Part shown: positions 1-55,227 of the stretch, in pieces | Layout of the letters: every line of letters starts with the position of its first letter | How positions within the stretch are numbered: the first letter of the stretch is position 1 | IMG/VR virus record: IMGVR_UViG_3300032282_000541 | Span: 1-55,227 of that record | Length of the DNA stretch: 55,227 nucleotides | DNA from: a virus | Reading direction: 5' to 3' (one strand) | Notes under the pieces: generated by a model | The model's database searches: none | What the model saw: only the letters and a program-made list of their open reading frames with translations | What the model was told of the DNA's origin: nothing | Position numbers and translations under genes: made by a program

Positions 1-36
1 AGTTGTGATGACAGCGGCAACAATGTTGGTTGTCAG
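1..36. repeat. Terminal direct repeat, left copy
   Basis: The first 36 bases are identical to the last 36 (55192-55227). An open reading frame crosses the join without a shift, so the repeat is best read as the overlap left when a circular or circularly permuted genome was assembled. It is too short to look like a packaged terminal repeat. Confidence 0.9.
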
Positions 37-23314: not shown

Positions 23315-23334
23315 AAAAAAATCGGAGGCTCTCC
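23315..23334 (-). terminator. Weak terminator-like hairpin
   Basis: On the minus strand GGAG, a 3-base loop, CTCC and GA are followed by seven T. The stem is short, but it lies exactly where the structured RNA segment would have to end before promoter site 5. Confidence 0.45.
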
Positions 23335-23580
23335 CCCTTATTGACTCCTTATCAATCCTTTCACCCAAAGACCCCCCTACCCCAGACGGAGTAGAGAGGG
23401 AAGGTGCTTCACCCCACTTGCGTGGATCATCATGTGAACGGTTTTACGTTCGACCCCTCGGCTTGATGATTCGACCAGCCGACTGGATTATTCGGGAACT
23501 GCCCCCTAGCCTTGCGGCATACCAGCTACGCTTTCCTTCCGCGCCACCACGACTGGGGTGCTTACTTTCGTGCGGAGTAC
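23335..23580 (-). ncRNA. Candidate structured RNA with tetraloops and a pseudoknot
   Basis: No convincing reading frame exists in this stretch. On the minus strand two hairpins are capped by GCAA (GNRA) loops: CCAC-GCAA-GTGG (23414-23425) and GCC-GCAA-GGC (23509-23518). A 6-bp stem pairs 23458-23463 with 23477-23482. Its loop (23464-23470) can pair with 23426-23432 over 7 bp, giving a pseudoknot that encloses a GAACG/CGTTC hairpin (23436-23451). More distant complements also exist: ACCCCAG with CTGGGGT. The length, phage setting and adjoining tRNA recall the large ornate phage RNAs such as GOLLD, but I cannot claim membership. The strand is chosen from the tetraloops and T-runs. Confidence 0.5.
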
Positions 23581-23597
23581 GGCAGGGGTGAGAAAAC

Positions 23598-23691
23598 AAA
23601 AAAAGCCGTTAAGACAAACCCCGGTGAGAACTCATCCCCCTTTTGAGAGGATGGCACCCCATGCGGGGTCGGAGTTTGACTTAACGGCTTT
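23598..23691 (-). terminator. Large terminator with a structured apical domain
   Basis: A 12-bp perfect stem (23602-23613 with 23680-23691) continues for 5 bp after one mismatch (23615-23619 with 23674-23678). The minus-strand RNA ends in seven U. The apex carries two more hairpins: CATCC/GGATG (23633-23653) and ACCCC/GGGGT with an ATGC loop (23656-23669). It would terminate leftward transcripts that pass through the tRNA. A 20-codon frame starts at 23694, just before the stem. Confidence 0.75.
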
Positions 23692-23780
23692 CATTTGCAC
23701 AGGTTCTCACGCCTTGCAATTCAAATTCTATCAACAGGTCTCACGACATGTCAACACCAAAAACAAAATGGTGTCGCATT

Positions 23781-23855
23781 TGGTAGCGGGGGCTGGATTC
23801 GCACCAGCGATCTACGGGTTATGAGCCTGTCGAGTTACTACTTCTCCACCCCGCA
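23781..23855 (-). tRNA. tRNA with CAT anticodon, initiator (fMet)-like
   Basis: 75 bases including an encoded CCA end. The cloverleaf reads closely like bacterial initiator tRNA. Acceptor bases 2-7 are GCGGGG, paired with CCCCGC. Position 1 (T) cannot pair with position 72 (T), the mark of initiators. The D stem has A11:T24, another initiator trait. The loop is CTCATAA (anticodon at 23821-23823). Only two of the three G:C pairs typical of the anticodon stem remain (an A opposite C replaces the third), and the D loop lacks the usual GG. The T loop reads TGCGAAT. The gene overlaps the end of a Cys-rich frame upstream. Confidence 0.85.
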
Positions 23856-24103
23856 ATAAGTTGTCGGCTACTTGCATTGTCTGGTTGACAATTAAGCAAC
23901 GTGGCGGTCTAGGCCATCCTTCAGCATCCGCTTTCACCAACAAGAGTATGGACTGTTTGCAGTTGCGACCTGCACAGAGCATCGGGATGAATGACTTGGG
24001 TTCGGCTGGCTTGCAAGACACCTTACCGCAGAGGTCACATGACCGACTTCATACCTGCCAATCCACACACTTGTTGGCGTTGGCGTTTACAGTCCACCAA
24101 CAC
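23812..24103 (-). pseudogene. Broken zinc-ribbon-like gene (frameshift)
   Basis: Two overlapping frames together resemble one Cys-rich protein. The first (GTG at 24103 or 24097 to a TGA at 24035) contains VDCKRQRQQVCGLAGMKSVM. The second, open from 24048 to 23812, continues with CDLCGKVSCKPAEPKSFIPM and LCAGRNCKQS. Joining needs a one-base shift at ATG-TGA-C near 24037. The second frame has no good start that includes CDLCG (a GTG at 24021 is possible). Its last codons run into the tRNA. Either a mutation, a sequence error or a programmed shift could explain this. Confidence 0.4.
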
Positions 24104-24117
24104 GACCTTCTAGAGGG

Positions 24118-24987
24118 TCAGGAATATACCATTTCTTTTTTCTTCAGTTCCATGACCTTCGCAACGACCGCAAAAAGGCTTTCCCTTTGATGCAGGTCGT
24201 TGGCATCCCATCCCACAGTATCGGCCATCGTCCAAGGCAAACCTGTACTTATTGCCGATTTTTCTCCAGTCTTAGATTCATCGTTGTCGGCAAAAACATA
24301 CACCCTGCCGGGCACCTGATCGGCCACCTGCACCATGTTGCTGGCGCTGAAGCACACAACCACCGCCGCAGGCATGCCAACGCTCTTCAGGGCGTGTTTT
24401 AAGGACATCCCTGTGGCTACCCCTTCGACCAGCCAACTCTCGCCTGCATCGCGGTTTCCCAGCGTCAGGACGGCGTTCTTTGCCCTCATGCCATGGAGCA
24501 TCTTCTTTTCATACTTGCGAGTCTCTACGTCCCATCTGATCGACTGGTAGCCCTGCAACTTGTTGGTCACCACGTTCCGCATGGGGATCAACAGTTTGTC
24601 GTCCAGCACCAGCCCACGGGCTTCCTTGAACCCTTTGATCTCAAGGTAGGGGTGGTAGTCCTGCTTGGCCGACCGCAGGGTGATGTCAGCCTGCAAGGCG
24701 GCGTACTCGTACTTCTTGTCCTGTTCGCTGGCCGCTGTGGATCGTTTAGCCGCCCATGCACGCTTTTCTTCGTCAGTCCATGGTTTGGCATGCGGGTCTT
24801 CGTACCAGATCACTCTGGCCTCTCCTGACCAGTCCATGACCCATCCACGCTCACCATCCCAGAAGTAGGCACCATTGCCGGACTTTGGCTTCTCTACGGT
24901 GCCACACCGCTTGATCTTGTCGGACGCATACAGGCGGGTGTGATCAATCTCAACACCATGGGCTCGGGCAAAGTCAACGAAACGCAT
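24118..24987 (-). CDS. TOPRIM DNA primase-like protein
   Basis: 289 aa. The C-terminal part is a TOPRIM domain: LVEGVATGMSLKHAL with Glu188, then RVYVFADNDES with Asp234 and Asp236. The region before it (LLIPMRNVVTNKLQGYQSIR) matches the part of phage primases that precedes TOPRIM. A small N-terminal segment (to about 60) has one Cys and GAYFWDGERGWVMDWSGEAR, as in primases with reduced zinc parts. It would prime replication, working with the SF2 helicase gene two positions upstream. No DnaB-type helicase domain is fused, unlike many phage primases. Confidence 0.8.
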   Translation of the reverse strand: MRFVDFARAHGVEIDHTRLYASDKIKRCGTVEKPKSGNGAYFWDGERGWVMDWSGEARVIWYEDPHAKPWTDEEKRAWAAKRSTAASEQDKKYEYAALQADITLRSAKQDYHPYLEIKGFKEARGLVLDDKLLIPMRNVVTNKLQGYQSIRWDVETRKYEKKMLHGMRAKNAVLTLGNRDAGESWLVEGVATGMSLKHALKSVGMPAAVVVCFSASNMVQVADQVPGRVYVFADNDESKTGEKSAISTGLPWTMADTVGWDANDLHQRESLFAVVAKVMELKKKEMVYS

Positions 24988-54627: not shown

Positions 54628-55227
54628 TTATGCTTGTGTTACGCCAAAAGCGCCAACACGGGTTGCATTTGGGCCTGCCGCAATTGCTGGCAGGGCTATG
54701 CCCATCACAAGACGTTTGATACCGTCACAAGCAGAAGAGGGCAAATAAGTACCCCGCACATCGCCAGTAGTGGTGGTAGCCGTCAATGTGGCGGCGGCGG
54801 CAAATGTTCCTGCATCTTCTGCAAGCGTGTTGTTCCAACCAGCGCGAGTGACGTATCCAGCATCAGTGATACGCAGTGGCGCACCCAAGATGTCGGTTGT
54901 ACCTACCGCAACAGTTACCACGCTTGCGCCAGAAGCAGTGACGCTGGAGATTTGGTAAAAAGCTTTTTTACCGTTGACAGTTGTTGATGCCACTGTTCCT
55001 GTTGCAATCACTTCGCTCATGGCTTGACCGTAGTAGTCGTAACCAGAAACAGTAATGTTGACAGAAGTTGGAGAACCAGCACCAGTGGTTGTAGAAACCG
55101 CACGAGGGCAGTCAAGTTGCAAGACTGTTGCGCCGCTTGTATTCGTAACGGATGTAACACCAGCACCTGCGGCAAGCGTGAGCGTGGTAGCAGTTGTGAT
55201 GACAGCGGCAACAATGTTGGTTGTCAG
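54628..55227 (-). CDS. Head-associated protein, C-terminal part (gene spans the junction)
   Basis: The 187-codon C-terminal part of the 325-aa protein that starts at 414. Frame and sequence continue through the 36-base overlap (…[20 protein letters not shown]…). The sequence has ITDAGYVTRAGWNNTLAEDA and TTGDVRGTYLPSSACDGIKR, then a conserved ending with GPNATRVGAFGVTQA, seen in a virion protein group of environmental phages. A head-fibre, decoration or completion role fits its place before the capsid gene. The natural start of the linear genome is not shown by this sequence. Confidence 0.85.
   Translation of the reverse strand: MTTNIVAAVITTATTLTLAAGAGVTSVTNTSGATVLQLDCPRAVSTTTGAGSPTSVNITVSGYDYYGQAMSEVIATGTVASTTVNGKKAFYQISSVTASGASVVTVAVGTTDILGAPLRITDAGYVTRAGWNNTLAEDAGTFAAAATLTATTTTGDVRGTYLPSSACDGIKRLVMGIALPAIAAGPNATRVGAFGVTQA
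55192..55227. repeat. Terminal direct repeat, right copy
   Basis: Identical to bases 1-36. Removing one copy gives a unique circle of 55,191 bp. Confidence 0.9.

What the first reader, a model, noticed from the sequence alone, without database searches (positions are those of the whole stretch)
23781..23855. Initiator-like tRNA (CAT) encoded by the phage
The tRNA matches initiator tRNA in its T1/T72 mismatch, A11:T24 pair and overall sequence, and encodes CCA. It is the only tRNA found. It deviates in the D loop (no GG), in one of the three anticodon-stem G:C pairs and in the T loop. A phage initiator tRNA could boost initiation, resist host cleavage of initiator tRNA, or be a decoy.
Basis: partly seen in the sequence, partly recalled or inferred. 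Interest (0 to 1): 0.7.

Follow-up and report, generated by a model that had tools for sequence, protein, structure and literature searches.

The report
Phage start tRNA, alternative elbow
A phage carries its own copy of the tRNA that starts proteins, and its odd sequence does not look like decay: many other phages share the same paired change in the part that holds the tRNA's L shape together.

Summary
The tRNA is real: minus strand 23855-23781, CAT anticodon, encoded CCA, the only tRNA in the record. An initiator covariance model gives it 82.4 bits; a model of other CAT tRNAs gives 55.8. In non-CAT tRNAs positions 18 and 55 change together: 1086 G/T, 43 A/G, 3 G/G, 0 A/T. Other tRNAs in the same viral stretches keep T55 in 667 of 685. 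In 36 aligned members 1:72 is unpaired in 28, while the other stems covary. Best reading: a functional initiator-like tRNA supplied by the phage, in a recurrent variant form. Expression, charging, formylation and host are untested. Phage initiator-like tRNAs as such are not new; one is annotated tRNA-fMet.

The parts
23781..23855 (-). initiator-like tRNA(CAT), 75 nt with encoded CCA
   Evidence: ARAGORN, Rfam tRNA 55.5 bits, initiator CM 82.4 bits
23821..23823 (-). anticodon CAT (34-36), in an unchanged CUCAUAA loop
23838..23839 (-). D-loop A18 (23839) and G19 (23838); canonical tRNAs have GG
   Evidence: invariant in 36 of 36 aligned members
23801..23803 (-). T-loop U54 G55 C56; canonical tRNAs have U55
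   Evidence: coupling with position 18
23855..23855 (-). U1, unpaired with U72 at 23785
   Evidence: 1:72 not a standard pair in 28 of 36 members and in 80 of 103 distinct viral G55 tRNAs
23816..23828 (-). anticodon stem 29-31/39-41 and loop; A29 (23828) opposite C41 (23816), G30:C40 and G31:C39 kept
23856..23957 (-). non-coding leader shared, together with the tRNA, with phage contig L159 (90.4% over 177 bases); holds GTTGGTGAAAGC at 23930-23941
23757..24130 (-). approximate extent of the tRNA-bearing module that is absent from the closest relatives L002 and L003, whose primase end abuts the next promoter

Best explanation
It is a phage-encoded initiator-like tRNA. Shown from sequence: it has the bacterial initiator pattern (CAU, unpaired 1:72, A11:U24, G2:C71, C3:G70, G30:C40, A73, CCA) and an alternative elbow in which A18 with G55 replaces G18 with U55 while G19 and C56 are kept. 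This elbow recurs in initiator-like tRNAs of many phages. Inferred: the transcript is matured by host enzymes, charged with methionine by host MetRS, formylated, bound by IF2 and used in the P site for AUG starts, so that initiation continues when the host initiator pool falls during infection. Also inferred: A18 with G55 makes a stable elbow that does not depend on U55 modification or on proteins that read the usual GG/TPsiC elbow. In this phage family the tRNA sits in a variable slot after the primase gene into which different tRNA sets have come and gone.
For: Initiator CM 82.4 bits against 55.8 for a CM of elongator-Met/Ile2 CAT tRNAs; E. coli metY-position gene 100 against 68.1. blastn in E. 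coli at E up to 10 finds a median of 4 places per genome in 5375 of 5426 genomes; the one place opened lies between argG and rimP, the metY initiator locus (name recalled). In 36 ungapped members of the class, 16 of 21 pairs show changes on both sides, 92.9% of cells pair against 39-48% for slid controls, and the exception is 1:72, unpaired in 28 of 36; 11:24 is A:U and 2:71, 3:70 are G:C, C:G in 36 of 36 (A11:U24 and the 75-nt length were selection criteria). Of 103 distinct viral G55 tRNAs 1:72 is a G:C or C:G pair in 1, and G30:C40 is kept in 93. 18/55 coupling: 86 G/T, 3 A/G, 0 crossed, 1 C/T in 90 distinct initiators not selected on 18 or 55; 1086 G/T, 43 A/G, 3 G/G, 0 A/T in non-CAT tRNAs. 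Other CAT tRNAs in the same viral loci, 34, all have T55 and Y11:R24, so these phages give the variant elbow to the initiator-like one. In 45 of 111 held stretches it is the only tRNA found, as in the window; in 5 of 11 G55 phage records searched whole it is the only tRNA. Tools for a role: the 18-55 pair of P-site tRNA matters for translocation (title of Pan et al. 2006 seen in a reference list), and swapping G30-C40 in E. coli cuts initiation 20-fold (passage, PMC11497404).
Against: No expression, charging or formylation data. The window copy has A29.C41 and A13.A22 mismatches. Only two related contigs carry this tRNA (L051 and L125, identical copies); the two closest relatives (L002, L003) lack it (whole contig of L003 has no tRNA). 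No sigma-70-like promoter lies between the primase gene and the tRNA, so transcription is assumed to come from upstream. A profile scored without 1, 72, 11, 24, 54 and 55 puts the window at 30.6, inside the initiator range, but one labelled non-initiator reaches 31.9 and one initiator falls to -13.9. About a third of the viral G55 class (35 of 103) lacks A11:U24 and 10 of 101 score below zero in that profile, so the class is not purely initiator-like. MFE folding is no better than shuffles. The host is unknown.
Confidence: 0.6

Rival explanations
1. Decoy or sponge: the tRNA is cut or modified by a host defence enzyme that targets initiator tRNA (such as VapC or AtaT) and so spares the host pool, without itself initiating.
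For: Initiator tRNA is a known target of VapC (passages, PMC10264068) and AtaT (title in a reference list). The anticodon loop is unchanged, as a decoy would need.
Against: Features that matter only for function in initiation (1:72, 2:71, 3:70, G30:C40) are kept across the class. No host or toxin is known for this phage.
Confidence: 0.12
2. Passenger or decaying copy: a host-derived tRNA carried by a mobile non-coding cassette and drifting.
For: Present/absent between close relatives; leader plus tRNA shared with L159, a contig with no window-protein homologue in its held 8.4 kb other than a short match to this same non-coding leader; two stem mismatches in the window copy.
Against: Compensatory T-stem changes between the window and L051 and strong covariation over the class; the coupled 18/55 exchange.
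Confidence: 0.15
3. It is an elongator tRNA-Met or a tRNA-Ile2 with lysidine that only resembles an initiator.
For: Of two tRNA(CAU) in a T4-like vibriophage one carries lysidine (passage, PMC13191261), so phage CAU tRNAs can be Ile2.
Against: 26.6-bit preference for the initiator CM; unpaired 1:72 and A11:U24; E. coli search returns the initiator-type places.
Confidence: 0.04
4. Attachment-site relic of an integrating phage.
For: Phages often integrate at tRNA genes (general knowledge).
Against: No integrase of family PF00589 in the record; none of 30 window proteins scanned against PHROGs was called integrase; a full-length divergent tRNA is not what a relic looks like.
Confidence: 0.01
5. 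Non-translational role, such as a primer or structural RNA that needs a tRNA-like fold.
For: It lies between the primase gene and a conserved structured RNA.
Against: Initiator-specific positions are kept; the slot holds ordinary elongator tRNAs in relatives.
Confidence: 0.05

Closest known systems
Bacterial initiator tRNA (tRNA-fMet, e.g. E. coli metY)
   Same: CAU, non-Watson-Crick 1:72, A11:U24, G2:C71, C3:G70, G30:C40, G31:C39, A73, CCA; 81.6% identity over 74 positions of the query in E. coli
   Different: A18/G55 instead of G18/U55, seven-base D-loop, A29.C41, A13.A22
Phage-encoded initiator-like tRNA-Met, canonical elbow (Pseudomonas phage D3, Caulobacter phage CcrBL9 annotated tRNA-fMet, Mycobacterium phage Daffodil, Prevotella phage Lak-B2 and others)
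   Same: phage-encoded, CAT, A11:T24 in 14 of 17 annotated phage records opened
   Different: all 14 have G18; U55 in 13 of them
Phage-encoded initiator-like tRNA with A18/G55 (Brevundimonas phage Gurke, L135; IMG/VR contigs L145-L262)
   Same: the same elbow exchange
   Different: Gurke has C11:G24; many members have other anticodon-stem pairs
Patescibacteria (CPR) initiator tRNAs with A18/G55
   Same: same elbow; in four CPR genomes the G55 copy is the only initiator-like hit of the pattern
   Different: chromosomal and, there, apparently the native initiator; rare even in that group (4 of 116 genomes of the phylum of G001 match)

Membership tests
bacterial initiator tRNA (tRNA-fMet) | CAU anticodon, A73 and CCA | tested here: met
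bacterial initiator tRNA (tRNA-fMet) | no Watson-Crick pair at 1:72 | tested here: met
   U1.U72
bacterial initiator tRNA (tRNA-fMet) | A11:U24 in the D-stem (feature recalled) | tested here: met
bacterial initiator tRNA (tRNA-fMet) | three consecutive G:C pairs 29:41, 30:40, 31:39 | tested here: not met
   two of three; A29.C41. The rule is not strict: 29:41 is G:C in 26 of 89 canonical-elbow viral initiators, so I call the tRNA initiator-like and do not file it as canonical tRNA-fMet
bacterial initiator tRNA (tRNA-fMet) | scores above non-initiator CAT tRNAs in a covariance model | tested here: met
   82.4 against 55.8 bits
bacterial initiator tRNA (tRNA-fMet) | charged with Met, formylated, binds IF2 and the P site | not testable with these tools
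   needs biochemistry
canonical tRNA elbow | G18 G19 in the D-loop and U54 U55 C56 in the T-loop | tested here: not met
   A18, G55; G19, U54 and C56 kept
tRNA-Ile2 (CAU, lysidine) | elongator-type CM score and Watson-Crick 1:72 | tested here: not met
phage tRNA that evades anticodon nucleases through anticodon-loop mutations (PMC10264068) | mutated anticodon loop | tested here: not met
   loop CUCAUAA is the ordinary initiator loop

The most novel reading that the evidence does not exclude
Phages have a dispersed second type of initiator tRNA whose elbow is rebuilt around A18 with G55. The exchange is selected, not drift: it keeps the 18-55 contact needed in the P site while freeing phage initiation from host U55 modification and from host enzymes that read the GG/TPsiC elbow, including ones that deplete initiator tRNA during infection.
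Probability: 0.3. Interest if true: 0.8.

Novelty: new variant of a known kind. Interest (0 to 1): 0.6.

Why it matters
The G18-U55 contact is described as near universal in the reviews seen (passages, PMC7912444, PMC7566577). A class of phage initiator-like tRNAs that changes both sides together gives a clean natural test of what that contact does, and of why phages carry initiator tRNAs at all. It also shows that automatic annotation as tRNA-Met hides a recognisable phage class.

Tried and rejected
Elongator-Met and Ile2 identity: rejected by covariance models. Attachment-site relic: no PF00589 integrase. Anticodon-nuclease escape by loop mutation: anticodon loop unchanged. A protein-coding gene between primase and tRNA: a 69-aa frame overlaps the tRNA, but L051 shows stops in the three frames printed across that stretch, so I treat it as non-coding. 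The leader motif as a tRNA signature: rejected; 48 of 59 motif sites in 58 viral stretches have no tRNA within 400 bases downstream, although in the first 491 loci and the window it occurred only near these tRNAs, apart from L006. Variant elbow as the normal host form: 3 of 200 genomes of the phylum of a Citrobacter genome match the pattern; two of the three matched strings also lie in held loci (L340, L286) where ARAGORN calls no G55 CAT tRNA, and the third was not checked. Secondary structure by energy alone: uninformative. A first count of the 18/55 table that mixed in loci selected on G55 (p 1e-18) is not used as evidence; I use, which leaves those loci out. In one search the non-CAT tRNAs lie in loci partly selected for a G55 CAT tRNA, low-quality and duplicate tRNAs were dropped, and the 43 A/G cases cluster in a few contigs (L305, L311, L193 and others), so its p value overstates independence; the same holds for relatedness. 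Position 18 was assigned by rule (GG first, then AG from the third loop base).

Papers: passages only of PMC10264068, PMC12482277, PMC11497404, PMC7912444, PMC7566577 and PMC13191261; only reference-list entries of PMC4810234, PMC7824862 and PMC6293099. No paper describing A18-G55 phage initiator tRNAs turned up in search listings; that library lacks most subscription journals, and I recall without checking that engineered suppressor tRNAs with altered 18-55 contacts have been studied.

Full report
The thing itself. The window is an IMG/VR virus record of 55,227 bases whose ends share 36 identical bases. It encodes portal, terminase, primase, helicase, ParB-like and tail proteins. ARAGORN and Rfam find a single tRNA, tRNA-Met(CAT), on the minus strand at 23855-23781. 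It has U1.U72, A11:U24, CAU, A73 and CCA, A29.C41 with G30:C40 and G31:C39 kept, A13.A22, D-loop AGUAGUA and T-loop UGCGAAU. An energy fold alone does not recover it better than shuffles (z -0.46).

Is it an initiator? I built one covariance model from 34 viral-contig initiators with the canonical elbow and one from 40 other CAT tRNAs. The window tRNA scores 82.4 and 55.8 bits; the E. coli gene between argG and rimP scores 100 and 68.1. The initiator training set was found with a consensus pattern, which favours that model; non-initiator CAT tRNAs in the same search score the other way (for example L174:4512, 49.7 and 78.5), but that one was in the training set of the second model. A profile that leaves out 1, 72, 11, 24, 54 and 55 gives the window 30.6, with initiators at median 38.4 (range -13.9 to 52.3) and non-initiators at median -64.2 (range -109.3 to 31.9). 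In E. coli, blastn at E up to 10 finds matches in 5375 of 5426 genomes, median 4 places.

Context. The tRNA lies between the primase gene (24118-24987) and a 2OG-Fe(II) oxygenase-like gene. Among 122 loci of relatives (L002-L123), nine loci from eight contigs carry ARAGORN tRNAs: Thr; Met plus Asn (L051); Pro-Asn-His; Pro-Tyr-Asn-Trp-Thr; Pro-His; Tyr-Asn-Thr-Ser-Trp-Ser. So the slot holds different tRNA sets in different relatives, though many of these loci do not extend far past the primase. The closest relatives L002 and L003 lack about 370 bases here and their primase end abuts the next promoter. A pattern scan gave one more homologue, L125, identical to L051. Window and L051 copies agree at 64 of 75 positions and differ by two compensatory T-stem pairs and one wobble.

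The elbow. D-loop A18 G19 and T-loop G55 C56 replace G18 G19 and U55 C56. With the window and its homologue and one annotated phage, 103 are distinct: A18 in 100, A11:U24 in 68, G30:C40 in 93, 29:41 G:C in 22, 31:39 G:C in 55, all three G:C pairs in 5, non-standard 1:72 in 80 and G:C or C:G there in 1. In 36 ungapped members, selected for A11:U24 and length, 16 of 21 pairs show changes on both sides; 1:72 is unpaired in 28 and 13:22 in 20.

Is 18 really coupled to 55? In 90 distinct initiators from loci fetched with a pattern that leaves both positions free, and after leaving out loci already held, there are 86 G/T, 3 A/G, 1 C/T and no crossed case. That scan reported 120 stretches of which 111 were new, so nine were loci already held; the four of those visible in its list are G55 loci. 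In non-CAT tRNAs of all loci then held, 1086 are G/T, 43 A/G, 3 G/G, 0 A/T, with other combinations besides. Relatedness is not removed from these counts.

Where is it found? In the viral loci, non-CAT tRNAs have T55 in 667 of 685, G55 in 15, C55 in 3, and the 34 other CAT tRNAs there have T55 and Y11:R24. In the loci from the initiator scan, non-CAT tRNAs have T55 in 409 of 410 and G55 in none. So phages that carry it usually give the variant elbow to the initiator-like tRNA. A scan of bacterial and archaeal genomes also hit its limit (118 stretches); ARAGORN and the numbering script give 56 distinct G55 CAT tRNAs there, 53 with A18. Many are Patescibacteria; in four such genomes the G55 copy is the only initiator-like match of the pattern, while in Brucella, Phyllobacterium and Euryhalocaulis genomes it is an extra copy beside canonical ones. 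Drawn genomes show it is rare: 3 of 200 in the phylum of a Citrobacter genome match the pattern, none shown to be a tRNA, and 4 of 116 in the phylum of a Saccharibacteria genome. 106 of 117 G55 viral loci hold no homologue of a window protein in the stretch held. In L159, one of the eleven others through only a short match in this same non-coding stretch, leader and tRNA are 90.4% identical to the window over 177 bases.

How it most likely works. Shown: initiator pattern, alternative elbow, selection on stems, recurrence in phages. Inferred: maturation, methionylation, formylation, P-site use, and supply of initiator during infection. For the supply idea there is a precedent in a vibriophage whose tRNAs sustain translation as host RNA is degraded (passage, PMC13191261). 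The 18-55 contact is reported to matter for translocation of P-site tRNA (title only), which is where an initiator starts; that makes a coupled exchange more plausible than loss. Why the exchange is favoured is open: independence from U55 modification or from enzymes that read the elbow are my guesses.

What is known. Phage initiator-like tRNAs are not new in databases: 222 phage records match at E up to 0.01, 14 of 17 opened have a CAT tRNA with A11:T24, and CcrBL9's is annotated tRNA-fMet. The eLife 2023 paper reports that phages of a Shigella host generally avoid tRNA-fMet (passage). I found no description of the A18/G55 class in the searches listed under Tried and rejected.

Noticed in passing
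window 23325-23754, minus strand: A conserved structured RNA directly downstream of the tRNA: promoter TTGACA-18-TAGAAT at 23754-23725, a long hairpin ending in a T run, a core of about 235 bases at 71-95.5% identity in 30 distinct near-complete relatives (57 loci with a match), terminator at 23337-23324; MFE z -5.3; 18 of 60 predicted pairs with changes on both sides in 21 sequences; no Rfam family near its threshold.
   Followed up: partly
window 23930-23941; L051, L124, L149, L159, L250, L522-L575: A dispersed non-coding element CCAGYCGTGTTGGTGAAAGC in 58 viral stretches, usually with no tRNA nearby (48 of 59 sites); in L051 three copies of its GTTGGTGAAAGC part precede the tRNA.
   Followed up: partly
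L193, L305, L311, L329, L336: Stretches in which several tRNAs of different isotypes carry A18/G55, two of them (L305, L311) in Opitutaceae MAG contigs with dense tRNA arrays.
   Followed up: no
L298, L303, L322, L332 (Patescibacteria): Chromosomal initiator-like tRNAs with A18/G55 that look native in these genomes.
   Followed up: partly
L242 (record G335): ARAGORN calls an initiator-like tRNA in this stretch, but the Rfam tRNA search of the whole record reports none.
   Followed up: no
window 1-36 and 55192-55227: The two ends of the record are identical over 36 bases.
   Followed up: no
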